Source of the DNA: Isoetes taiwanensis
Taxonomy: Eukaryota; Streptophyta; Lycopodiopsida; Isoetales; Isoetaceae
Assembly: GCA_021234155.1 (NCBI GenBank)
Contig: JAJEKV010000020.1
Coordinates: forward strand, 3,580,563 to 3,644,562
Reading direction: 5' to 3'
Length of the DNA stretch: 64,000 nt
Both the position numbers and the translations under genes were made by a program. The stretch's first letter is position 1, and each line of letters begins with the position of its first letter. Of the stretch, positions 286 through 46,980 are shown one piece after another. The notes under the pieces were generated by a model. The model had not been told where the DNA came from and ran no database searches. It saw only the letters and a list, made by a program, of their open reading frames with translations.

Positions 286-2323
286 AAGAGAGAATGGATC
301 AAACAAAAGCTATTGCATTACATTGCACCTAGAATGGTGATGAATATCCACCAAGAAAGAGTGAGCTTGAAGAAGGAACTACTTGGTTTGGAGGGGCTTT
401 CGAGAGATGACATGTTAAAGATGCATGAAATCTACAACATTGAAAAGGAAGTGACCCGAAATGTTTGGAAGTTGCATGAAGATGAAGCTACAAGCACTCA
501 TATGTGGGTGCAACAACACCTTGACAAGATTGTATTCCATTATGAGCAAGGTGAGATCTTCCAATTGGGTGTTATGACTCCCACCCAAAGAGGAGCCTTC
601 TTTGAGATTTGGAAAGGATAGGGCATTGTGTCTCGACTCCACCTACAAGACGAACGGGATGAGGTAGGGTTGCACCTCTTGCATTTCAATGCTCATATAA
701 GACTTTAGCTTCCTTGCCAACATTCTTAAGTTGTGTTGCTACTTTACATTAAAGGTACTACCTCTTCACTATCATTGGATTCGATGACTACTTCAATGGG
801 ATGCCTTTGGCTTGGATTATCACGAACTCCCAGAAGAAAGATGCAATTGCAAGATGGCTAGAAGCCATGAAAGTGTGGGTTGAACGCCATGACTCAACCT
901 GGAAGCCCTCATGCTTTATCACCGATTCTTGTGATGCCGAAATACATGCAATTAAAAAGGTAACAATGTTTCCACTATGAGCAATTTTAAGTGGTTCATT
1001 TTGCACACTCACATGTGGCATCTCTCTACACTTCAGGTTTACCCTAGCGTGCGCTTGAACCTTTGCATCTGGCATGTGAGAAGAGACTGGTTGAAGTGGT
1101 TAGTCAAGAACGTGAAGAACAAGGAGATAAGGAACCAAATGTTTAAGGAATTGGGTGAGATCATGTATGGAATCAAGTGTCCCCCAGGTAACAATGAATA
1201 TGGAGAGGATTACAAGGAGGCTGTTAAAGTAGAAGCTTTGAGAAAGTTGGAAACCCTGAAAGGAAAGTATCCTCAGTATCCCAGATTGGCCTCCTACATG
1301 AGTCGTGAGTGGACTCGCAATATATGTGAATGGGTGTTGGCCACAAGAATGTTCCCCCATTCAAACCAAGAAACCAATGCTGCAATAGAGGGTTGGCACA
1401 AGATACTAAAGATGCGCCTGGGCATCTCCAAATCCTGTCTGAAGGGAAGGAGGATGGACTGGCTACTACATATGCTTGTCAATGAAGTTGAGGCACATAC
1501 AACATACTCAAGGTAATTTGCAAAAGATAACGTGTTTTGTATACTTACGTGTGCACTAACACACCACGTTGTTTCATTTACAAGCACACAGGGGGATGAA
1601 AGAGGCTGGTTTTGTCATAAACACATCACAAGAGAAAATTATAGAATCGGCTATTCGAGGGGCGTGGGATTCGATGATGCAAATACCTTTGTAGACCTCG
1701 GCAAAGGCGAGGCATATGTCCGAACTCTTGATCTCAACCGCCAACCGCACTTTGTGAGTGGGGCACACAGAATTGGGCGAAGTTGTGATTGCCCATGGGG
1801 TGCCAAAGGTAACCTTTGCAAACACCAAGTTAAGGTTATTCAACTAATGGACGATTCTGAGAGAGCAGGACATCTTGAAGGTTCTAGGTTCGATTATGGA
1901 AATGCAAGTGGTGGCATGGAGCACTTGCGCCCTTGTACACCTGGGGTCCCCCCTGGAGATTCACTTGAAGAGATAGTTAGTCTAGAGGATGACATTCTCC
2001 CTATGAAGAAAGTTGGGTTGACCGTAGAGGAAGCTAGGGCCTCACTAGAATCGTGTGTTGCAAGGGTTATGGGACGGGCCTCCAAGGATCCCAGCCTCCT
2101 CATAGCCACAGAGGCGATGATGAGACAACTCGACACCAGGCTTGAGAGGATGGACGAAGAGGATGGACAAGACACAACTATAATGTCTTTGTCAGTGCTG
2201 GAGGAAGAGGAGGCATATGGAACGAGCCTTGTAAGGATGAAGCCACTCTTGGAAATAGGGAAGAGGGGGCCAAAGGACAAGAAACGGAGTTGGAAGGAAG
2301 TTGAGATGGAGAGCCTTGCTTAG
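286..2323 (+). pseudogene. MULE-type transposase with SWIM zinc finger, intron-containing, frameshifted
   Basis: Conceptual translation gives a Mutator-like (MULE) transposase. The first catalytic Asp lies in LDSTYKTNGM (about 628-660), followed by FTIIGFDDYFNGMPLAWII (about 765-822), a second Asp in CFITDSCDAE (about 911-940), then LCIWHVRRDWLKWL (about 1055-1096). A C-terminal SWIM finger, SCDCPWGAKGNLCKHQ, sits near 1783-1830. Three short introns restore the frame: 664-754, 960-1036 and 1513-1591, all GT..AG. The frame still breaks near 620, where a TAG follows EIWKG and the DSTYKTNG frame is offset by one, and again near 1680 in the SWIM exon. The copy is therefore decayed. Such proteins normally cut and paste their own element at terminal inverted repeats; no such repeats were identified here. 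The 5' start lies in poorly resolved sequence. Domain assignment is strong, exact ends are not. Confidence 0.8.
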
Positions 2324-31179: not shown

Positions 31180-32330
31180 TGAGAAGAAACCCATTAATCA
31201 AGGATACAAGTGGAGTGACATCCAACTCAGCGAGTTGAAAAACACTAGGATGAACGACCTTTGTAACTTCATAAGGTCCTAACCATCGAAATTTGAGTTT
31301 GCCAGGATGGTGCTTGTATCTGGAATCATATAATAGGATTAAATCTCCTTCCTTGAATTCTTTGATTCTAATCTTTTGGTCATGCTAGGATTTCCGTAAC
31401 TGGTGTCCCAGCAAGGACGCGAAGATAAGCGTCTCGGTGGACTTCATCAAGTTATTGGAGTTGATAGACACATCCTCTGAGAGTAGGAGGAGGATTAGGT
31501 GTCATTGCCAACTAAAATCTCAATGTGGGTAGAACATACTCAAAAGGCATGAAGGCTTCTTGGCCATAAACAAATTTGAAAAGTGTTTGGCCCATAGCAA
31601 TTTTGTAAGTAGTGTTATAGGCCCATAAAACAGTCGGTATCTTTTCATGCCAATCTCTCAGAGAAGCATCATAGACTTTCTTGAGAATATATCAGTGTTT
31701 TATTAGTGCTTTCTGCTAGACCATTGCCATGAGGATAGTAGGGTGTGCTTTTTCTGTGATGGATACGAAGGTAATCTGTGAGCTCTTTGATGGTGCGATT
31801 CACAAAATGAATACCACAATCACTAACAAGTTCCTTGGGGCACGCAAAGCGGGTGATTATGTGCGTGTAGAGAGCCCTGCCATGTTGGGATGCAGTATTG
31901 TCTGGCAGGGCACAAGCTTCTGCCCGTGAAAAGGATACAACATGCCCAGGTATGGCTAGCCGGTGGGTCCAAAGAACCTATAAAATCCATACCCCACGTA
32001 CTAAAGGGGAGAGACGTGGCAACCGGGGTTAACGGTAAGGCATCAGGGGTAGTTGATCGACCCACACTTTAACAGACATCACAATTGTGGGTTTGTGCAT
32101 GAGGATCTTTAAGCAGCGTGGGCCAATGATAACCATTCAGAAGGATTTTCTGCGGCGTATTATCACCGCCGAAATGGCCACACCCCAAGCCTTCATGTGC
32201 TAGTTGAATAATTCGTGGAATTTCATTGGGAAGAAAACATCTGCGTAAAATCATATCCTTGCCTCGTTTGTATAGATAGCCTGCAACCATGGATTAAGCA
32301 GCATTAACAGATTCCTTTAAGAACTAAGAA
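31180..32330 (-). pseudogene. Ty3/gypsy retrotransposon integrase relic
   Basis: Minus-strand translation gives the HHCC zinc-binding region: ILRRCFLPNEIPRIIQLAHE, CGHFGGDNTPQKI, then HNCDVC near 32070. The catalytic-core opening PLTPVATSLPFSTWGMDFIG follows (about 31960-32035), then YGQEAFMPFEY and a C-terminal linker to about 31200. Frames shift and stops occur, so it is inactive. Integrase inserts the retrotransposon cDNA. The protease, RT and RNase H regions were not recognised upstream (above 32.3 kb). Confidence 0.8.
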
Positions 32331-35322: not shown

Positions 35323-37007
35323 TCATTTGTTGATCGTGAGTGAAACTGGGATGAGGGAAGGTCTATATGCAATACCAAAGCTATAATAATGCTCTCCTGG
35401 ACTGTTGATTCTGTTCCAACTCTGGTTCCTTAAATTGCACACTATAACTGGAACAGACATGGTCCCACATGGAAAATAGTTGGTTCCTCCCACACACATT
35501 ACATTGCCTTCCACTATTCCAACTCTGACTGCAGCAACCTTGGAAACATGGTCCTCATGCACTTCCCAAACACCCATGCCAGTAACAATATTATAAGCAG
35601 AATAGGTGTCCAACCCCGAGGTGCTTCCTAAGTACAAGGAACCCTTGTGCCTCAACAAGCAAAAGCCTTGCCAAGGTGGAAGCAGCAGCAAACGCATTGC
35701 AGAATCTTGAGGTAGGATTTCTACAGCTTCAGGAGGTAATACTTCATCCTCAGAAGGTAGAATATCTGATAGTTCAATTTTGTTGCTCTCAAGTACAGTA
35801 ATCCACTCTTCATGATGCAGACCAAAGTCTACAAGTTCTCTCCCTGGCCTATCACTCTCTCTGTCGTATTCTTCGTCATTTTCTCGGTTGTATTCTTCAT
35901 ATTCTAATGTATCAGACCAGACATTAGCAACAGAATCATAAACATGATAAACATAATCGTAGTCGCATTCGCGCCATACACCTGTAATAGCAAGCCTGTA
36001 TGCACCTGAAATACAATCCAGTAATTCCATCTTCACCTGGACTCCGCATCTATTCATATGTAAATGACTCCACAACCTGACTAACGTGCTCTTAAGAGGT
36101 GGCAGCCGGAACCATTCCCTTATCAAAGGATTGCCCACCACGAGGGCAAAAATTGAAGGACATTCTGCCACTAGTCTAGCACACACCAACCCCTAAGAGG
36201 CGTGGGATAGTCTTACCCTGGATTGGGGGATCCCGGAGGTGTGATCCTAGAGGACGGGATCCCCGAGGACGTGTGATCCCGGAGGACAGAATACCCCTTA
36301 CTGCGCAGTAAGTGTGCATATTTTTTGGCCCTTGAAAGAAAAAATGGGGCAGATTTCGTGTGGGATTTTCTCCCTTGATCTGCAACCAAATCGAATGGGG
36401 TCAGTTCGAGGATGGTCGGAATGGGCTGGATCAGAGGCACAGGTAGGAGCAAAGGAGGAATCGAAGCGAGCGCCGCTGTAATCAGCAAGCTTCAATCCGG
36501 CCAAAAATCAGCCCTAAACTGCGCAGTAACCCATTAACTGCGCAGTTGACTGTGTGATCCCGGAGGACAGGATCTTTTCTGATGGTGATCCCGGAGGACG
36601 GGATCGCCACCTCCGGGATCCCCCAATCCAGGGTAAGACTATCCCACGCCCCCCTGAGATGAAGCCACAACCTGAATGTCTGGGCTTATAGGAGAGAACC
36701 TGGATATACCCCTAACAGAAGTCCACAAATCTGTCCATGAAGGATTTTCCTCCCCCGTCTTAAAGCAACTTAGCAAAACCCATGAGTCCTCATCATGCTG
36801 CCACTTCTGCCTGAATCTGGAGGAGCTAATGAAAGAATGCCATGCCTTGCAGACACTCAAACATCTGAAGAGGCTCCTTACGTCGAGAGCTAGAAGTATA
36901 TTTTCCAATAAATCCTCGAAAATCACTGATCTCAGGTTATCCATTTCCACATTTGAAAACAGTCCCTTGTTCCTCTTCATCCCAATCTCTTCTGCAGAAC
37001 TAGCCAT
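35323..37007 (-). CDS. F-box/kelch-type protein gene, interrupted by a 456-bp element
   Basis: The N-terminal part (37007-36651) begins MASSAEEIGMKRNKGLFSNV and holds an F-box, LRSVIFEDLLENILLALDVR then SLFRCLSVCKAWHSFISSSR (residues about 24-66). The C-terminal part (36189-35323) begins LVCARLVAECPSIFALVVGN and carries the kelch-like region PLIREWFRLPPL and onward to a stop. Joining the parts through one copy of the CCCCT duplication gives SSQGLVCARL in frame and 407 aa in total, a usual length. F-box proteins select substrates for SCF ubiquitin ligases. The break falls in the VVASSxGLVC segment, which is continuous in this family, so it is an insertion and not an ancestral intron. An upstream in-frame ATG (37020-37022) is possible. 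Function depends on splicing of the insert. Confidence 0.75.
36190..36655. mobile_element. Non-autonomous inverted-repeat DNA element inside the F-box gene
   Basis: The left arm 36199-36241 and right arm 36609-36651 are perfect or near-perfect inverse copies of about 43 bp, beginning GGCGTGGGATAGTCTTACCC. CCCCT flanks the element at 36190-36194 and 36651-36655, a likely 5-bp target duplication. Inside each arm lie GTGATCCCGGAGGACGGGAT repeats and the palindrome ACTGCGCAGT (three copies). No transposase frame. The left end has a short extra AAGA, so the exact element boundary is uncertain by a few bases. Superfamily not assigned. Confidence 0.85.
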
Positions 37008-37099
37008 GACCTGCCTAATCATATCTACTGCATGTACCACAGAGATTTTGTGATCTTTGTAATTACAACACTCAAGATTTAAGAAATGCGTCAAAAAGA

Positions 37100-39970
37100 A
37101 AGACCTTAAAACTCAGAGCTCTTGTTGTCGCGAGATGCCTCATAGCCGGAACGATCCATAGTGCAGAAGCCCCCCCCTGCAAACAAGACCTAAAGGCGAA
37201 ATGCTTCCCGCCATGGCAACGGAAATCTAGATCCTTGCTTACGTATATGAGAATTTCCTTCTACTTGCAATTCTGTTATGGAAAATGTGCCGCCTTTATA
37301 CATTCCTCTAAGGAATTGTTTCGTTACAAAAGTTTGTAACATTCCTGTAACGAATTGTTTAGTGTTGTTTATAGTTGTCAAAAAAAAATTGTTAAGTAGG
37401 GTTAAAAAATAGAATCTTCCAAATTCTAGACGATCCCTCCCACCTTAGTGAATGTTTGCCCACTCTACGAATGCAATTGGAGCGATGTTCCCCAAGATTT
37501 TCTTGATATGAAGCTTGAAGGAAACTGCATTCGTCAGTACCGGTTCAAAATATTTTTTGCTATGGTTTACTATCCTTGTTCGTCGAGGTATTTCAACTTT
37601 GGATACAGGGGCAAAATCTACAATTCAAGCTTTACCTCGAAAGCAGTAGTTAGCTTCTCGATGTATTTTGGTACAAAGTGTTCTTTATGTGCATTATACT
37701 CCTATATTAATTTTATATTGCTTGATCGAAAATAGGGTATCTTCTGTAGGTAAATATACTTATATGTTTACTGCATGCTTTACATGATCTTGGTAAGCGA
37801 CATCAAAACATTGGGCACGTGGTAATACTTGCTGCTAAATGTATTTAAAACATGTGATTAAATATCATTTTTATTCAGATCCCTGCGAACAGAACAGAAG
37901 CTTATTTACAAAGGCAAAAATTTGGTAATCAAAGCTTTTTGTCTAAGTTTTAAAGTTATACCGACAAGACTTGCCATTGGATAGATGTCACAGACCTTTG
38001 ACTTCCTCCTCTGTGAATTGAAGAATATTACCTACCAAAGGAAGCACATCATTAAGAATTTCGAGATGATCATATAATTGGACCAACCGCTCATCCCATT
38101 GCTGCATAGGAATATATCCAAGAGTAGGATGTGATCGATATAATATTTTGCACCAAAAGGTCCAAGGCTCACGTAGCAGCAATTCAAACATTTGCTTTTG
38201 ATGCTCAACAACAAAGCGTGCCTTTATGCATTTCAACACGGACTTATACTTTTTGATGGCATACTGACAATGAAGCTTGTACTATTGAGAATCCTGTTTG
38301 CTCTAATAGTGAGTCCTGTTTGTTTAAAATGAATAAACTTGTAATTTATACTGAGATACGTTATGTTTGAGCACTCTCGAACATGTATCTACACATATAT
38401 AATCAAGCTTCTTATTTTTCTTTTTCTTTTTTTGTTCTCTCCTCATTTTTTCTCTGCCGCAATCTATATCACTATTGAAAAGCCACGTTTTCGGTGAGAT
38501 GGTTGAGGAGATCTCCACCGTATATGTTGGCAGTGCCATAGCCACACTGCCATAGCCACAACTCGTGCTTTTGCTTCTGGCAGAGGATCAAACGACACCA
38601 TAGCATTTATACTTGCCAAAGGAATCGACACAATTTTTAAGTATTTGTGCAAAGAGCCAGTGTCGATGTTAGTCTTTCCTTGAAAAAACAGAGCAAAACT
38701 CCTTTTTTTGCTTTTTGTGTATTGTGGAAAGCTAATTTACCTCCAATCCATTTGGGCTTCGTTCGTGGCTCGATATGTTGAAGCTGAGGCTAAAGCAGCG
38801 ACGGCGGGTTGAGCAGAGCAAAGCAAAAGGAAAATGACTATGGTATTTTTTTCACCATCAGGGCATAGTCCTTCTTCTGTATGAAGAACACGCCATCTTC
38901 TGCTTCATTCTGCTTCCTTGTGAAGGTTGCATTTACTTACAGGATTGAGTTCAATTTAGTTAAAGTATTTTGATTGAGTTCAGTTTTGTTAAAGTTGAAG
39001 GCATCGCGCGGCCTTCTGAGGACATGCCTTCTAAGTCTTCTGCTTTCATTTACACAAAAGCAAAAAAGTTTTGTATTGATTTTTCTCCTGCTCTGATGTC
39101 TCTGGCTAATTTACAGCAGAAGGTGGCATGCTGCATGCTGCCACTCTTGACAAGCCAACTTTGTGGGCCATGGTATTTATGCTTAAAGCTTAAAATTACT
39201 AAAGCTTTCTGCTCGTCCTGCACCACCCACAAAGGGCTTCGGGAGCTAGAAAAAAATTGGTAAGCATTCTTCTTCCCTTGTTAGAATCGGACAATTGCTT
39301 AGCATAGGCCCTGACCCGGGCAACACTTAGGCTGCAGATGTAGCCAGGGCCACTCCATCACTCCATGCATGGCAGTCCTGTGCAACCTCAGACTCTTCGC
39401 TGGAACTAGGCATGCTCCAAATCTTCCATGGAAGCAAATCGATGGCTGCTAATCTTCAAGCAAACTCTGAGGACCTGTGCACGTTACAGCAGAAGCCGCC
39501 CTACAGATGCTCCTGCAAAATATGGTGCAGAAGGTATGGATTATAATTTACTGCAGGATTTGCAGGCCGTGGATGAATTTCTGCATTCCAGCATCATTGT
39601 CCATCATCAGGGGTCGAATTCAAGGGACAAATTTACCCATTGAAAAAACCCAATTTTTTTCACATAAAATGCATTGTCGCTATGGTGTTGTGGCTATGAC
39701 AGATTGCTAGAAGCAAGCAGGGCATCATATCCGACTAGTCTTTCCTTTCTTCGGTATGGTTTTCTGATGAAGTTATTTATATTAGAATGTATCTGCTAGG
39801 GATTGAAACCGCCAGAATGCCAACTATGCCAACAGATTCGCATCAGAACATTTCAGAATAACAGCTATGGTGCATCTAATAATCGCCTTAGGCTTCTTAA
39901 TCAGTACCTCGTCCAATCTTACTCTTTAAAATGTGATTTCAAAGAAAAATTTGTAACTTATTCACCTTGG
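37100..39970. other. No recognised gene
   Basis: Several modest frames (37448-37735 plus; 37988-38239 minus, reading EPWTFWCKILYRSHPTLGYI) match nothing I know. 37130-37380 is the likely upstream region of the F-box gene. Confidence 0.35.
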
Positions 39971-40254
39971 TAGAATACCGCCGCGATAAGTTTCTTGTAA
40001 CTACTATCTATTTCACAGGCATGTGATTAACTTCTTTGGATGGACGAAGAATAGGAATGGACATTAATACATTTATTTGATAATATTAGTAATGGACATT
40101 AATTAGAATATTGACATACCAAATGCATGATCAATTTGATAGATATACAAGTTATGTTAATAACACAAATTATTCATTACTATATGAAGTGATATATGTT
40201 TTAGGAATGTACATGAATTTCTAAACAATCGCATTTTCATTGTAAGAACGTGAA

Positions 40255-40902
40255 ACAACAAAAGATCTGCAGTGATCGCTCCAATAACATGGCGCGACAT
40301 CACATATTTGAACTGAGAAGTTAGTCCATATATGGTCTAGCAAAGCACTTTGTCTTATTGGTTTGCAAACATGTTGGGTGTACTAAGACATTACATCTTT
40401 AAGCATTCTCGAATATCCATTATCCTTTAACATGTCGATGTTGAAGTCTCCTAATATAGCATACAACAATTTAGATCTTATTTGTTTGATGATATTATGT
40501 ATTATCTTCACAAAATCCTGTTATAGATGAGTTCGGTGGTCTATATATCTTTACAACAGAAATTGCCTTTCCATCGAATTTGTCAACAAAGGAAACAGTG
40601 ATGGATATAAGATTTGTTGAATATACCTCATTCTGCTCAGTGGTCTTGAATCTGAATTTGTTGTACAAGGTTGCAATACTATTCTTATTGAAGTTGTATA
40701 TCCCCATGAAATGTTGCGAATCTATGAACCCATGGACGTGACTTCTCAATTCTTGTACACATATAATGTCAGACGTAATCAATTGGTGGTCTGCACATAT
40801 GTCTGCTTCATATGCCATAGCAGAACAAGTATTCAATGTTGTAATTATAATATTAGGAGCCTTAAATTTTTGCAAATTCGGAATTGTTATTTGCCATGGC
40901 AT
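40255..40902 (-). pseudogene. Endonuclease (EEP-type) domain at the Helitron C terminus
   Basis: Follows the helicase on the same strand. Motifs in order are ITTLNTCSAMAYEADICADH (metal-binding Asn region), SDIICVQELRSHVHG (catalytic Glu), VVKIYRPPNSS, LGDFNIDMLKDNGYSRMLKD (40434-40451 for GDFNID), LLDHIWTN (40320-40343) and YWSDHCRSF (40272-40280 for SDH). These are the conserved blocks of apurinic-type/LINE-like endonucleases. One frameshift near 40495 and one TAG near 40384 break it. C-terminal endonucleases mark the Helentron (Helitron2) branch. Plant Helitrons more usually carry RPA genes. Confidence 0.85.
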
Positions 40903-40929
40903 TTTTTTTTCCTAATCGCTCCATTTCAG

Positions 40930-42785
40930 CATCAACTACTGGGTTTACATTGAAATGACAATGTTGTATGGGATTTGTGAGATACAAAGTGTCCTTGGAC
41001 CTTACTTGCGACAAAGCTGTATATGCCATTCCTCATTTTTTAACTCCTTGTGGATTGATTTCGTATTGCTAATTGCATGGGAAATTGTTCACGCATGATA
41101 TTGTGCTTTTCATTTTTACCAATTTGGCACAGTCTTTTTTGTTTTTTAAGTGGTGTCCATGACTTCTCTACTACTGCAGGTCGCAAATGCTCCAAATTAC
41201 GTCGAACTTTCTCTCATGTGGAAGGTGTTGGGAATTCTACCCACAATATTTCCTTTCTAAGCATCGTACTGTAATACCTTAATATTCCATCTGCGCCATT
41301 AACTAAACCATCTGATAGATCAATATTAGAAGTTAGCTCGACAAGCATACCCAATTTCAGTCTCAATTCTTTATGCAATCCGTATGTCTTGCGAGCATTG
41401 GTTGGCAAACATGCTGTATGTGGACAACCTTTCTGTCGCACATCAGTGGCTGTGAGATTGTAAGAATGCTAGAGCGCTTGTTGTAGGACCTACACATGTA
41501 TGCATCCTTAGATGATATTGCAATACTGAAATAATATAAGACGTTTGCAAGATACCTACTCCTTATGTGCTTGGACATCGTCATATTTTGAGAATAAATA
41601 TGGAAGTGTCAACTTATTATGTGGGCATCTACAACATGCATTATTTATATCTATGTCCGTTTGTACTCCAATACGAATGTGCGACAAGCATTCTGCAAAT
41701 GGTAAATCGTCGCGCTGCCTGACAAGTTCAAAAAGCTCATAGTATCTGAAATTGGACTTCCATAAATGATTGATCCCTGGTATAGAAATAGAATCGAGAC
41801 ATTTTTGGTCCTTATCATCAAGATTATCAAAAACCATCTTGTCAAACAATGGTGGCAATTGATAAAAATCTCCAGAAGTTATGACATCTAGTCCGCCAAA
41901 TGGGATGTTCAATGTACTTTTGATGCTGTGGTGGAAAGATAAAAAATTAATAAAAATGATACATGTCCTCAATAGCACATTACTTACTTAATGAACTATT
42001 ATCTATTGCGTAAGGCATCAATGTATGAAAAGAACACTAGTCCCACCAATGATATCTCATTGACTACGGGCAATTTAACATCTTCATGTTTATTTCTCGT
42101 TACTTGCAGTACTTCACGTACAAGCATTTTGAGGTGTGCACCCATTGTGGCTGTAGGACGAATCTGAAATGCTGAGTGTATTGTGATCTCGTTTATATTC
42201 TTTGCAGCTTTTTCTGTATATGCCATTACAGTAGTTGTTGTTTTCCCGAGTCGTTTGGAAACTGTTGCTGAAAAATACTTTAATCCATCGATCAAGCACT
42301 CAACAAGTCTTGATTTACCGACACCAGCACCTCCAGTCAAAAAAAGTAATATTTGAAAATTGGAATCCGCTCCATGGTGTTCTTCGTTTGGCATCACGGC
42401 AATGTTTGGGATTTTTTATGAAAATCGTTCATTATCGAGATGCTTAAATGAAACTTGAAATGGCAACTCATAACCTACATCAAACTCATCATTCTCTTGG
42501 TGATGATCGAGTGAACCAACTGTATTCTCACTGACCGACATTTCAATGTTTTCCCATTCACCTTCTTTTGTAAAATATAATCTTGAATGTGCTTCTTCAA
42601 TCATTTTTTCATTTCGAATATAAGCAGCATAGCATGTCTCTCCTTCGCATACTAATTCTTTTTCGTTCGTGAATGGTACATGAAGCATCAGTTGCTCATA
42701 TGCCCATGCCTCGATGCCCTTGTCTTTATTAAAGTTAACAAATCAAATAATGGCATCCTTTAATGTGCCAGATTTGTCCCTCTGT
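40930..42785 (-). pseudogene. Helitron Pif1-like helicase region
   Basis: Starts LKDAII..FVNFNKDKGIEA and AYEQLMLHVPFTNEKELVCE. The Walker A motif is LLFLTGGAGVGKSRLVECLI (about 42290-42350), then AYTEKAAKNINEITIHSAFQ. A degenerate Walker B, VNEISLVG, has Asn where Asp is expected. IPFGGLDVITSGDFYQLPPL lies near 41850-41910, LTSNIDLSDGLVNGADGI near 41290-41340, and a much-shifted terminal motif near 40970-41080. The order matches the helicase half of Helitron RepHel proteins, which unwinds DNA during transposition. Multiple frameshifts. Confidence 0.85.
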
Positions 42786-42789
42786 CTTG

Positions 42790-42886
42790 TATTTATAGAA
42801 TAGAATAGTAGTTTTAACGTCACGCCACTAGGCAGCATCCAACTGGACATGTGACCACACACCACACTACATTGCTCGGTTGAGAT
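42790..42886 (-). mobile_element. LINE 3' end with TATTC-type tail, nested in the Helitron
   Basis: On the minus strand: GTGTGTGGTCACATGTCCAG, TTGGATGCTGCCTAGTGGCG, TGACGTTAAAAC, then a TATTC-repeat tail. It matches 46990-47080 and 25616-25665. It interrupts the helicase coding region between 42785 and 43205. Confidence 0.75.
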
Positions 42887-43208
42887 TGACGTGGTCTATG
42901 GTATATGCGATAAAGCCTGGAAAGGTTGAGGCTCATGAAGGATCCGCCCTTTTGGTGTGTTGGTTATCACTAGAGGTACTAGTGCGTAACATTTGGTATC
43001 AGAGCCAAGGTTCGATTCCTTATGGCAACATTGGTATGTCCCACATGCTTGAGGGCAAGCATCTCGAGGAAGAGGAGGAATTGATATGGTCTATGGGGTA
43101 TGGGATAATGCCTAGAAAGGTTAGAACCTATTGGATAATGATTTCTTTGAAGGATCCGCCTTTTTGTTGTGTTTGTTATCACTAGAGGTACTAGTGCATA
43201 ACAGAGAT
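42882..43208 (+). mobile_element. Complete TRIM retroelement with 5-bp target duplication
   Basis: LTRs at 42887-42991 (105 bp) and 43082-43203 (122 bp), each starting TG and ending ACA. A primer binding site TGGTATCAGAGCC (42994-43006), complementary to plant initiator Met tRNA, sits directly after the first LTR. The polypurine tract GAGGAAGAGGAGGAAT lies directly before the second. GAGAT flanks both sides (42882-42886, 43204-43208). The internal part of 90 bp is non-coding, so movement must be in trans. The second LTR has an extra block of about 15 bp. Orientation is plus, opposite to the Helitron host. Confidence 0.92.
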
Positions 43209-43325
43209 ACATATCTCTTAGGAATGGGTTAATGCATTTTCTATTTTACGAATTCTTTCTACAACATGGTCATTATTCTCTTCACATGTTCTCATCACCT
43301 TTGTCATTGTTGTAGATATTTCAGT

Positions 43326-44960
43326 TTATGGGCTAGTGATGTATGATAAATAGTATGTGGCAACAACATATGCATTGAAGATATACTGGAAATTAATGTT
43401 TGCCCTCCATAGTAGTGCAATCTCCAAGCTGAAATTGTTTTCCTTGCAATGTTTAACTCTTCTCTTCAGGAAAACTGTAAGACCTTTTAAACGGTACGAA
43501 AGCACTCTAAAATACTGAATTTCTGTCAATTGCAGATCGTGCAACATGTCGTCGTACTCTTTGTTACTATCTTTCCAGTTTGCTTTGAGCCACAACTTCA
43601 ACTTTTGCTTGCACTATACTAACGATCCCAATTCATTGCCAGGATAGTTATACGGTTCCAAAATACGTGTTTTCATCATTGGTGGTTTTGGAATTTGAAA
43701 TCTACAATCCACATTCTTCTTTTTCTTGCACGAACGAACATGCCTAGGCACTTGCATTTGCCGCAATTCCGTTGGTAATTGATTGGTGTCTGTTGTAATA
43801 AAGCTGTCGACGAAATGAATTATCTCATCGTACGATGCGTATGGGTATTGTGGAGCTCCATTGATCCACAAAATCATATGATCATGAGGACTTCTCCCAT
43901 GTTGAAATTGTGTAATACATACGAAATCCACTACACCACTCGCCAACATAGATTGCTCATGAAGAATCAACTTCAGTCCAGTTATCCTATTTGCATAGTA
44001 CCTCGTACAAGTTAGAGGATCAACTCTAATAAGTTCGAGTATCAATCGTTTCTCGGTCCATTGCTGTTCATTTGCCTTTTCTATTATATCAGGATTTAAA
44101 AACTAGGTCCGGCAAATTCGTTTCAGCCATACTAAATGTTGCAAATATAGTAGATGGACCTATTTCCCGAATCATTCCCATTGCATCCTTCTTCACAGCT
44201 TCTAATTTTTAAGGTGATGAACGTATTGACTTCAAATCAGTATACTCCATATTTGTTTTGCAAACTTCTTTCAGTTTCTTTGAATCCATGGCATCTATTG
44301 CTGTTAGATTGAAATTACTTCGTCTACCACATCGTATGCGAAAGTTTGTCTAATCACTGACAAATTATAATTCTTCTTTTACTAATTTGAAAAATATGTT
44401 TGATGCAGACCTTGCAAAACATCGATCTGCATTCATTAACTCCCAATGACATATTTGTTTGTAAGTAATCACCACCAAACAATTCTGGAAAACACATTTC
44501 TTCTGCATGTGGAATAGCATACAAATCTAGAGGATGAGATCCTTCGCCAGGAGCTACAGCGACAATTTTATCTTTGTAATCTCTTATCATCTCAGGAGTT
44601 ACATTCTAGACTAAAGTGTCTCCCTCGTGTCTGTTACTGTTCTGGTCCACACCATCGTCAACTGCATCAATATCGATGACATCGATTTTGCTTCTAAGAA
44701 GAACAATCCATTCATCAATAATTTTAATGTTTGCTGCCCTGTGTAAGTTGCTATTATGTAAGGAGCTCAATGCTGACATAACAACAAATGGTCTAACTAG
44801 ACCTTCCATGTGTACATTTGCATCAGACATTCTCCTTTTCAATTGCAACCTTATCATTATCATGTAGACGTGGTAATGCAACTTGAGTTCCCTCGATATC
44901 CGCAGCAACATGTATTAGACCACCGCGTAACTGTTGTTGACCAATTCTATTGTCTGATAA
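43326..44960 (-). pseudogene. Helitron Rep (HUH) region with upstream DUF6570-like part
   Basis: Begins with ADIEGTQVALPRLHDNDKVA and GLVRPFVVMSALSSLHNSNL, like the segment that precedes Rep in Helitron proteins. KIVAVAPGEGSHPLDLYAIP and AEEMCFPELFGG follow, then the Helitron_like_N domain: DPLTCTRYYANRITGLKLIL, then FQHGRSPHDHMILWINGAPQ, whose H-D-H is the HUH metal-binding motif. It continues with VRSCKKKKNVDCRFQIPKPP and LLWRANINFQYIFNAYVVAT. HUH endonucleases nick DNA to start rolling-circle transposition. At least one stop and several frame changes occur near 44.1-44.6 kb. Confidence 0.85.
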
Positions 44961-44999
44961 CGATATTAGAGCAAACAGGATTCTCAATGATACGAGTCA

Positions 45000-45830
45000 A
45001 TTTTCCAATTCTGATAACAGGGAGCCAACAATTGTTTCCAGTCTAACACCAGCCACTGTCCAACTTAAAAAGATGGTATGGTGGTACATATGCTTAAGAA
45101 TGCTGCAGATGTGGCCTGATTTGCTTGCACGCCCTCGTGTTGCATTTGGCAAAAGAGAAAATGTGCTTCTTGCATATTCTAGAAATAAACTCCAATTATT
45201 GTACTCCATAATACAACATCAAGAGTGATTGCTCTGTCAAATACTTGCCATGCATCTTTAAGAAAACCATGTTTAGAGTATATATCCATAAGATACCTCC
45301 AATGTATAGGGTACTTCCAATGTTTAGAGTACCTCCATACTGTAATCAATATTTAGAATGTCAGCATGGATTCACTTTCCAATCTCTGGGCATGTGGTGG
45401 CGGTGCATACGCTTAGGATGTTGATATAAGTAACTTTATCTAACTTCAAATTTGAGCACGCATCTGTCCATAATCTCAATAACACCTTTGGTAATTTCAG
45501 ACTGAGGATATGCCACAATTATTGTATTCCATGAAACAATGTCTCTCGAGGGCAATGCTTCAAACAAGTGATAGGCATCCTCAGTCCTTCCACACTTGGC
45601 ACACACGTCAATAAGTGCATTACCTACAAAGTCTTCAGACTGGTATCCAGTCTTTATGATGGTAGCATGAATCCACTTTCCCTGTCCTAAAACTAAAATA
45701 GCAATACAAGCACTTAGAATGTAGACAAAGATCCTTGTATGGTCTGACACCCTCAAGTTGCATCTGCTTAAAAAGTTGAAGTGCACCTGCGATTATGATT
45801 GTCCATGTGAAAATACTACGCATATGTAGC
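45000..45830 (-). pseudogene. Pentatricopeptide-repeat (PLS-type) pseudogene
   Basis: Minus-strand reading gives ALQLFKQMQLEGVRP, then FVYILSACIAILVLGQGKWI, HATIIKTGYQSEDFVGNALI, CAKCGRTEDAYHLFEALPSR and DIVSWNTIIVAYPQ, standard plant PLS repeats. After a shift it continues ACT...IGKWIHADI, then LKDAWQVFDRAITLDVVLWS and LFCQMQHEGVQANQATSAAF near 45060-45200. At least three frameshifts. PPR proteins process organellar transcripts. Its low-coordinate edge abuts the truncated 5' side of the Helitron. Confidence 0.75.
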
Positions 45831-45839
45831 CTATCAAAA

Positions 45840-46980
45840 ATATATATCGCATCATATATGAATCTGTTTAATCTTCTTCGAAGTGCTTAATTAATTTGAT
45901 ACAACATTCCAATAAATATATATAATTTTCTAAATATGCCCATGTTCCACACCGGCCAGACAGCTCCGAAACAATCAAAGCCTCCTGCAGTTGTTCCTTT
46001 TGAATTACGTCTTGAGACTTTGCCTGTGAGTTTTTTCGATGTCCATACCTTAAAGTCTCTTGTCTCTAAAGCGAAAAAACACCCAACAGACCGAAATGTG
46101 ACGAATATTTCCATGAAGATCAAATAATAGTTCAGTCGATTGTGCCAAGTAAATCATTATAGCAATTATCACCGGTTACAAAATCCACCCAAATTGCATG
46201 TACTTATGGCTAATTTTCCACTTCGGATTACAAACAAAAAATCCATTGTATTAGTTATATACAATGATTGTAGAAGGGTTGATCTAGAGAGAATTTAAAA
46301 TTCAAAAGAAAGAGAAGGCAACCTCTGTCGAGATTGGCACCAGCTCAGAGATACACACACAAAGTTTCCTACACACCTTTTCCCTGCCTCTGTTTATAGA
46401 TATTGAAGATTCTAGCCCAAATTTAAATACCGGAGCTCTGTGTCATATAATTATCGTCTTAAGCAAAGCACAACAATCCATAAATTCCTATTGGTTTTCT
46501 GATTGATTGAATGTACGGACAGGTAACACCTGCAGGAGAGCTTGTGTCCAGTTTCTCAGCCTGAATACTTTTGAAAGGTTTAAAACTCCAGAACTATCTC
46601 AGGCACTACCAAGGAACCAAGGAAAGGGATTTCCACCTTCCACCTGGCTCCCATACAATCCTCACCCTCTAACCGTCACTAACTTTCACTAGAAGCCAAA
46701 AAGTCCACAGCCATCCAAGAGGAATGTTCTAAATTATTCTAACATTCGAGCCATCTATATGTCACTCCCCCATCATCTCAAGGGTTGCTCCCTATGGGCT
46801 ACCCAAAAAACAATTTAATTCATTTCAATTTATCCAATTTTATCAATTGCTTAATCCTTCTGAACCGTGAAAATTCTAATGCTCTACAAATGAATATATC
46901 TTAGCATATTTTACTTCATAATTTAGAGAAATGCATATGTTGCATTGTAGAATCGCACTCTGAATTGTTGGGTGTCAAAA
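45840..46980. other. No recognised gene apart from a retroposon end
   Basis: 46782-46810 (GGGTTGCTCCCTATGGGCTA, then CCCAAAAAA) is an ending of the hairpin/A-tail family. The rest is unassigned. Confidence 0.4.

What the first reader, a model, noticed from the sequence alone, without database searches (positions are those of the whole stretch)
40255..44990. Plant Helitron with a C-terminal endonuclease (Helentron-like)
Rep (HUH), Pif1-like helicase and a full EEP endonuclease (GDFNID, LDHIWTN, SDH motifs) lie in order on one strand. EN-bearing Helitrons are best known from animals, fungi and algae. Plant Helitrons typically carry RPA genes instead. A land-plant copy is worth placing phylogenetically.
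Basis: partly seen in the sequence, partly recalled or inferred. Interest (0 to 1): 0.75.

Follow-up and report, generated by a model that had tools for sequence, protein, structure and literature searches.

The report
Quillwort Helentron transposon with fused endonuclease
The stretch is a dead copy of a rolling-circle jumping gene (a Helentron) that carries its own DNA-cutting domain, a type known mainly from animals and fungi and doubted in plants, and it belongs to a family of many copies resident in a land-plant genome, very probably a quillwort.

Summary
On the minus strand, window 45018-40216, lies a decayed Rep(HUH)-Pif1 helicase-EEP endonuclease gene, one of many copies in a 1.66-Gb genome whose size and contig number fit Isoetes taiwanensis. 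The stated refutation (a separate LINE) fails: 33 of 86 Rep loci have an endonuclease downstream on the same strand, 25 of them at 2.4-2.9 kb; in at least four of 11 copies read, helicase and endonuclease share one open frame; the endonuclease evolved under constraint. A young subfamily gave both ends: 5' hairpin, asymmetric inverted repeats, short 3' hairpin, insertion within T-T, three insertion-free sites. These are Helitron2/Helentron ends, not canonical ones. Rep carries the Helentron serine (RGSPHDH); a canonical Helitron of the same genome has leucine. Longer copies also carry two RPA-like genes, and two putative introns are conserved. Thomas et al. (2014) could not rule out contamination for their few plant hits; here copies sit on scaffolds of 2-53 Mb and inside host repeats. 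This is a resident plant Helentron family, a new member of a known kind. The window subfamily's own ends, its place among animal Helentrons and the endonuclease's source remain unsolved.

The parts
40216..45018 (-). decayed Helentron-type element, coding part (window copy, subfamily A); true termini of this copy not found
   Evidence: blastn to sister copy L013: 78% over 45018-43204, 76% over 42797-42373, 76% over 42368-40216
44745..45018 (-). remnant of the DUF6570-type region N-terminal to Rep, broken frames; limits approximate
   Evidence: aligns with L013, whose frame hits DUF6570 at E 6.7e-8
43851..44402 (-). Rep (Helitron_like_N) region, frames broken; HUH motif PHDH 43889-43878; limits approximate, by alignment with L013
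   Evidence: open stretch 44102-43617: genome matches, Helitron_like_N E 0.05, 1e-17 in L013, motif
43329..43613 (-). Rep continuation with YxxxY motif (43355-43341)
42798..43203 (-). foreign stretch of about 0.4 kb with direct repeats, absent from sister copy
   Evidence: gap in alignment to L013; 56-nt direct repeat, 93%
42002..42415 (-). Pif1-type helicase, Walker A GGAGVGKS (42334-42311)
   Evidence: AAA_19 6.1e-10, PIF1 5.9e-4
41559..41987 (-). helicase continuation (GGLDVITSGDFYQLPP); the first putative intron of sister copies lies at its start
   Evidence: PIF1 7e-5; GT-AG in sister copies, donor GT lost in the window copy
41217..41468 (-). helicase 2B domain
   Evidence: Pif1_2B_dom 1.7e-6
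40865..41032 (-). helicase motif VI, passes by a frame change into EN
   Evidence: one open frame in L013:6896-7702
40498..40911 (-). EEP endonuclease, N-terminal part (TLNT, QELR)
   Evidence: EN of sister copy L018: Exo_endo_phos 1.4e-6
40386..40520 (-). EEP endonuclease, GDFNID motif
   Evidence: sister copies
40224..40382 (-). EEP endonuclease C-terminus, LDHIWTN and SDH motifs, stop
   Evidence: sister copies

Best explanation
It is a dead member of a family of Helentrons (Helitron2-type rolling-circle transposons) resident in the nuclear genome of a land plant, very probably the lycophyte Isoetes taiwanensis. Proposed working of a living member (inferred from anatomy and known Helitrons): the Rep HUH/YxxxY domain nicks one strand at the 5' hairpin end, the fused Pif1 helicase unwinds, the displaced single strand is coated by the element's own RPA-like proteins, the asymmetric inverted repeats and 3' hairpin mark where replication ends, and the fused EEP endonuclease nicks T-rich target DNA so that the element joins between two T without target duplication. 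Shown here: domain order and fusion, ends, T-T insertion and insertion-free sites (in a sister subfamily), constraint on EN, resident copies. Inferred: the role of each protein and the order of steps.
For: Order and distance: 33 of 86 merged Rep loci have EN downstream on the same strand within 15 kb, 25 at 2400-2900 bp; 1 of 86 has EN on the other strand, 3 of 86 upstream (with the window query alone 28 of 86, 22 of them at 2571-2799 bp). Fusion: one open frame over helicase motif VI and EN in at least 4 of 11 copies read, L009, L011, L013, L018. Domains: DUF6570, Helitron_like_N, PIF1, Exo_endo_phos. EN fold: Foldseek finds nocturnin, LINE-1 EN and TDP2 at E 4e-9 to 1e-8, TM-scores 0.4-0.5 (model pLDDT 57). 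Constraint: dN/dS of the window copy against L013 is Rep 0.17, Hel 0.24, EN 0.21 (no significance test). Ends: 8 of 8 fetched 3' ends (of 19 matches) read GTGCGCAAGCACCTTG|TT; 9 of 10 fetched 5' ends carry the GGGTTGCCCGAAGGGC-type start with up to 4 changes, 7 of these 9 directly after two or more T. Inverted repeat GGGTTGCCCGAAGG / CCTTCGGGGCAACCC. Three insertion-free sites, TTTTTT against TTTTT[element]TTT. Rep signature S in 12 of 12 sequences, L in Helitron1 copy L063 (signature from PMC4067079). Two putative GT-AG introns at constant places, the first in 8 copies, the second in 6.
Against: 53 of 86 Rep loci show no EN within 15 kb; part must be truncation or divergence, but EN-less relatives are not excluded. 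In two other pairs EN is less constrained than Rep and helicase: L013/L014 0.39 against 0.24 and 0.24; L018/L019 0.31 against 0.20 and 0.19; and L013 against the decayed L015 gives 0.70 (Rep), 0.98 (Hel), 0.49 (EN, 64 codons). The second Rep signature named by Thomas et al. (F/Y-x-R) is not seen where I expect it (FVC, YVC, SVC). The 3' hairpin is short and no better than shuffles (z -0.85). Ends were solved for subfamily B, not for the window's subfamily A. The RPA-like call is weak (DUF223 E 3e-4 to 1e-3, under the cut-off). None of the 12 copies read has an unbroken gene from N-terminus to EN.
Confidence: 0.93

Rival explanations
1. A canonical (Helitron1) plant Helitron into which a LINE was later inserted, so that the EN is a separate element.
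For: LINE-type endonucleases are abundant in this genome (104 matches to PF14529 at E <= 1e-3, 150 of 2036 candidates scored); the window copy has frame breaks between helicase and EN.
Against: Near constant Rep-EN spacing on one strand in 25 of 33 pairs; one open frame over helicase and EN in at least four of 11 copies; EN constrained in the window/L013 comparison like Rep and helicase; four Helentron ENs split from four LINE-type ENs of the same genome with local support 0.985; no reverse transcriptase hit in the 10 window stretches scanned.
Confidence: 0.02
2. [quoted passage not shown] Thomas et al. 2014 could not rule contamination out for plant hits).
For: The assembly authors state that contaminants were present and had to be filtered. 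Some EN matches lie on short contigs, for example C210 of 172 kb.
Against: The 12 contigs from which copies and ends were fetched are 2.4-53 Mb long; EN loci lie on 78 contigs. One copy sits inside a repeat that has insertion-free relatives on three other contigs.
Confidence: 0.02
3. A Helitron2 lineage of plants that captured an EEP endonuclease on its own, independently of animal Helentrons (Helentron by convergence).
For: Rep signature differs in part from animal Helentrons; putative introns, whereas the mite Helentron ORF is described as without introns; EN fits Exo_endo_phos better than Exo_endo_phos_2 (L018 1.4e-6 against 0.1, L013 8e-5 against 8e-4), while the mite EN was reported as Exo_endo_phos_2.
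Against: Same order (C-terminal EN), same kind of ends, same T-T target as animal Helentrons (PMC4067079); a single origin is simpler. The Pfam difference is weak evidence.
Confidence: 0.2

Closest known systems
Helentron (Poulter et al. 2003, recalled; Thomas et al. 2014, PMC4067079, sections 10 and 11 and passages read)
   Same: Rep-Pif1-EN in one protein, EN C-terminal; RPA gene in the element; palindromic subterminal inverted repeats; 3' palindrome; insertion in T-rich TT; deletion derivatives
   Different: land-plant host; two putative conserved introns; two diverged RPA-like genes on opposite strands; second motif-2 signature not seen; no OTU or SET domain hit in the stretches scanned
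Helitron2 (Bao & Jurka 2013, PMC3627910, section 9 and passages read)
   Same: 5' ATIR at the very end forming a hairpin, 3' ATIR about 20-30 bp from the end just upstream of a hairpin; they name Helitron-5_SMo
   Different: Helitron2 elements are described as Rep/Helicase without EN (as summarised in PMC4067079)
Canonical Helitron (Helitron1) of plants
   Same: Rep HUH and Pif1 helicase; RPA genes in many plant Helitrons (PMC4683698, passages)
   Different: same-genome Helitron1 frames L063 and L064 have no EN and end after the helicase; L063 has RGLPHVH; 5'-TC/CTRR-3' ends and A-T target are not those found
LINE endonucleases (L1 EN, 1vyb/8sp7)
   Same: EEP fold and motifs
   Different: fused to a helicase, no reverse transcriptase found in the stretches scanned; apart from same-genome LINE-type ENs in a small tree

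Membership tests
Helentron | HUH Rep with two tyrosines (YxxxY) | tested here: met
   HxH in 10 of 12 sequences (PHDH in 9, LHDH in L013; L015 and L017 read HDY); YxxxY found by pattern in 7 of 12 (six YCLSY, window YYLSY)
Helentron | serine before the PHxH of motif 2 (Helitrons: leucine) | tested here: met
   S in 12 of 12 sequences; L in Helitron1 control L063; control L064 gave no pattern match; signature as stated in PMC4067079
Helentron | F/Y-(w/l/y/k)-R signature near motif 2 | tested here: inconclusive
   F, Y or S present, C in place of R where I place the signature; the figure that fixes the position is not held
Helentron | Pif1-family helicase in the same protein | tested here: met
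   L014:2981-5461 is one frame from Rep (E 1.4e-17) to PIF1 (E 5.7e-11)
Helentron | AP/EEP endonuclease fused C-terminally | tested here: met
   one frame in L009, L011, L013, L018; Exo_endo_phos 1.4e-6 in L018, 8e-5 (just under the cut-off) in L013; fold
Helentron | palindromic inverted repeats, terminal at 5' and subterminal at 3', plus 3' palindrome | tested here: met
   subfamily B only; 5' hairpin z -3.9, 3' hairpin z -0.85; not solved for the window's subfamily A
Helentron | insertion within TT, no target duplication | tested here: met
   8 of 8 fetched 3' ends followed by TT; three insertion-free sites for one copy, two T fewer than the filled site
Helentron | EN related to CR1 LINE endonuclease | not testable with these tools
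   no CR1 or animal Helentron EN held; only four LINE-type ENs of the same genome compared
Helentron | clusters with Helentrons in a Rep/helicase tree | not testable with these tools
   no reference proteins held; scans of viral contigs and genome contigs confirmed no relative
Helentron | more numerous non-autonomous partners (HINEs) | tested here: inconclusive
   one deletion derivative of about 3.9 kb (C1043) and a shortened copy (L024); only 19 matches to the 3' end and 12 to the 5' end of subfamily B genome-wide
Canonical Helitron (Helitron1) | 5'-TC and CTRR-3' ends, insertion between A and T | tested here: not met
   subfamily B ends TT|GGGTTG... and ...CACCTTG|TT
Separate LINE insertion | EN outside the transposase frame, with own reverse transcriptase | tested here: not met
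   shared frames; near constant spacing; no RVT hit in 10 window stretches

The most novel reading that the evidence does not exclude
Land plants hold an old, self-standing Helentron lineage whose endonuclease was captured independently of the animal one, so that the fusion of Rep-helicase with an EEP nuclease and the T-T target arose twice; in plants it was combined with two RPA-like genes.
Probability: 0.15. Interest if true: 0.7.

Novelty: new member of a known kind. Interest (0 to 1): 0.5.

Why it matters
Thomas et al. [quoted passage not shown] Here the family is shown to be resident in a land-plant nuclear genome, diverse (four ENs 32-42% identical to each other) and with copies whose 3' ends are 97-100% identical. 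That makes the questions of vertical descent or transfer into plants, of one or two captures of the endonuclease, and of what the endonuclease does in target choice, open to direct test.

Tried and rejected
Rejected: separate LINE insertion and contamination (see rivals). Tried without result: relatives outside this genome in viral contigs and genome contigs (14 and 19 pattern matches, none confirmed); subfamily B end motifs in the window (4 matches, 2.4 expected; 0); the 3' end of subfamily A (other copies continue past the first apparent end); RPA-like identity by PDB sequence search (none; best Teb1-type OB at E 0.24) and by fold (pLDDT 41; best Teb1 OB-B at E 1.9e-3, so only suggestive). 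A first reading of the 5' end at L029:2003 was wrong: that point is where another high-copy repeat interrupts the C1027 copy. The notebook entry still carries it, and the 3.6-kb length of C1043 given in the notes is too short for the same reason; it is about 3.9 kb. Paper searches: searches used too loose term sets and say little; (Isoetes taiwanensis, genome assembly, Helitron; 2 of 3 terms) listed 10 of 1,001 papers, none on Isoetes; one search gave one general review; (Helentron + Isoetes) gave none; searches list 30, 30 and 5 papers. Of all these I read only named sections or passages of PMC4067079, PMC4683698, PMC5148889, PMC3627910 and PMC6213432, and passages of PMC8566536 (found). So 'not in print' is limited to this open library and these searches.
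Full report
WHAT IS THERE. The window lies at G000:C1019:3580563-3644562 in a genome of 1,658,258,908 bases and 1110 contigs. The published Isoetes taiwanensis assembly is 1658.30 Mb in 204 scaffolds plus 909 contigs (PMC8566536, passages read), so I take the host to be that lycophyte; this is an inference from size and number. On the minus strand, 45018-40216, the window holds a Rep-helicase-endonuclease gene in pieces. The copy is dead.

A FAMILY, NOT AN ACCIDENT. Protein searches of the whole genome gave 103 Rep (150 of 201 candidates scored), 71 helicase and 88 endonuclease matches; a second endonuclease query gave 156. After merging neighbours there are 86 Rep loci and 153 endonuclease loci, the latter on 78 contigs. 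An endonuclease lies downstream of Rep on the same strand within 15 kb in 33 of 86 Rep loci, and 25 of these lie at 2400-2900 bp; one Rep locus has an endonuclease on the other strand and three have one upstream. The 53 unpaired Rep loci may be truncated, too diverged for the two queries, or EN-less; I did not sort them. Eleven further copies were read; by nucleotide identity they fall into four subfamilies, A (L013-L015 and the window), B (L016, L017), C (L009-L012), D (L018, L019). Their frames show DUF6570, Helitron_like_N, PIF1 and Exo_endo_phos. Helicase motif VI and the endonuclease share one open frame in at least four of the eleven, L009, L011, L013 and L018. None of the eleven, nor the window, has an unbroken gene.

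THE ENDONUCLEASE BELONGS. Between the window copy and L013 (dS 0.67-0.81) dN/dS is 0.17 for Rep, 0.24 for helicase and 0.21 for endonuclease (Nei-Gojobori, stop codons dropped, no significance test). In other pairs the endonuclease is less constrained than the rest: L018/L019 give 0.20, 0.19 and 0.31 (N-terminal part 0.36), L013/L014 0.24, 0.24 and 0.39; L013 against the decayed L015 gives 0.70, 0.98 and 0.49, the last on 64 codons. All values for the endonuclease are below one. A model of the endonuclease (pLDDT 57) matches EEP nucleases in the PDB, nocturnin, LINE-1 EN and TDP2, with TM-scores of 0.4-0.5; a profile finds LINE-1 EN at E 0.002. In a small tree four Helentron endonucleases split from four LINE-type endonucleases of the same genome with local support 0.985; two of the four LINE-type rows are partial, and a reverse transcriptase hit was checked for one only, L061. 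Two canonical Helitrons of the same genome (L063, L064) have strong Rep and PIF1 hits and no endonuclease in a frame that ends after the helicase; they are 2 of 150 scored candidates out of 1813. A third (L062) was fetched but holds a run of N and was not scanned.

ENDS AND TARGET. A young subfamily (B: C1035, C1027, C1025, C907, C985, C1043) showed both ends. The 3' end was the same in 8 of 8 fetched copies out of 19 matches...GTGCGCAAGCACCTTG, followed by TT and then unrelated DNA, except that two copies on C907 share their flank, apparently a duplication. The 5' end, TT|GGGTTGCCCGAAGGGCTAACCC, was found with up to four changes in 9 of 10 fetched ends; one (C1056) diverges, two of the nine (C1018, C878) belong to related sequences that match over only 42-53 bases, and the C907 pair again share a flank; 7 of the 9 have two or more T directly before GGG. 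It folds as a hairpin (z -3.9), while the 3' GTGC-GCAA-GCAC hairpin is short (z -0.85). The 5' GGGTTGCCCGAAGG pairs with the 3' CCTTCGGGGCAACCC, which lies about 20 nt from the end, just before the 3' hairpin (changed by a deletion in L027). This is the layout that Bao & Jurka describe for Helitron2 (PMC3627910 section 9) and Thomas et al. for Helentrons (PMC4067079). For the C1035 copy three insertion-free relatives of the site exist on other contigs: TTTTTT where the filled site reads TTTTT[element]TTT. So it inserts within a T-tract without a longer duplication. The window's own subfamily (A) ends were not solved.

OTHER GENES. Longer copies (C1025, C1035) carry two related genes (38% identical), one on each strand, between the 5' end and Rep. 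The minus-strand one hits DUF223 at E 3e-4 to 1e-3, below the cut-off. A low-confidence model (pLDDT 41) of the plus-strand one resembles single-strand-binding OB folds, best Teb1 OB-B at E 1.9e-3. I call them RPA-like. Of 118 loci of this gene, 29 lie within 16 kb of a Rep or EN locus against about 0.4 expected at random; 20 of 86 Rep loci have one (125 of 139 matches used). The helicase part has two putative GT-AG introns at constant places, the first in 8 copies, the second in 6; no transcript was seen. C1043 is a copy of about 3.9 kb with the middle deleted.

WHAT IT IS. Rep motif 2 reads RGSPHDH or a close variant, with the serine that Thomas et al. give as a Helentron sign in 12 of 12 sequences; the Helitron1 copy L063 reads RGLPHVH. 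Their second sign (F/Y-x-R) is not seen where I expect it, so the family looks divergent. With the fused endonuclease, ends and target met, I file it as a Helentron, new member of a known kind. Thomas et al. [quoted passage not shown] they list fungi among the hosts, whereas Chellapan et al. found no endonuclease in the Helitrons of 102 Pezizomycotina proteomes (PMC5148889 section 12). Here copies sit on scaffolds of 2.4-53 Mb, one of them shown inside a host repeat. Whether the plant lineage and its endonuclease share one origin with the animal ones could not be tested, since no relative was confirmed in the held collections.

HOW IT PROBABLY WORKS. Inferred: Rep nicks and joins by its tyrosines, helicase peels the strand, RPA-like proteins coat it, pairing of the two asymmetric repeats undoes the 5' hairpin and ends replication (idea of Bao & Jurka), and the endonuclease opens T-rich target DNA (idea of Thomas et al.).

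Noticed in passing
window 45060-45900 (-): Decayed pentatricopeptide-repeat gene fragments (PPR E 5e-6 in 45439-45792) directly upstream of the Helentron coding part and on the same strand; homology to sister Helentrons stops at about 45018. Could be a neighbour or a captured gene.
   Followed up: partly
window 42798-43203: About 0.4 kb of foreign DNA inside the element; a 56-nt and a 43-nt direct repeat lie in and next to it, copies about 200 nt apart.
   Followed up: partly
L035:223-1498 (+) and L035:3802-5439 (-): Two diverged RPA-like genes on opposite strands in one Helentron; 89 of 118 loci of this gene in the genome are not near the Rep/EN loci found.
   Followed up: partly
L049 (C1018:14441050-14441200), L050 (C878:322100-322250): Sequences that share only the first 42-53 bases of the subfamily B 5' end: perhaps other or non-autonomous families with the same terminus.
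   Followed up: no
window 1517-2320 (+): SWIM zinc-finger protein fragment (E 4e-4), probably of a MULE-type transposon (recalled).
   Followed up: no
window 36642-37112 (-): F-box protein (E 7e-7), possibly continuing to 35326.
   Followed up: no
window 31672-31977 (-): Integrase core fragment (rve E 5.8e-6, below the cut-off), probably of an LTR retrotransposon.
   Followed up: no
L013:7641-8064: An insert in this Helentron copy flanked by an exact 86-bp direct repeat, holding a tRNA-like stretch by eye.
   Followed up: no
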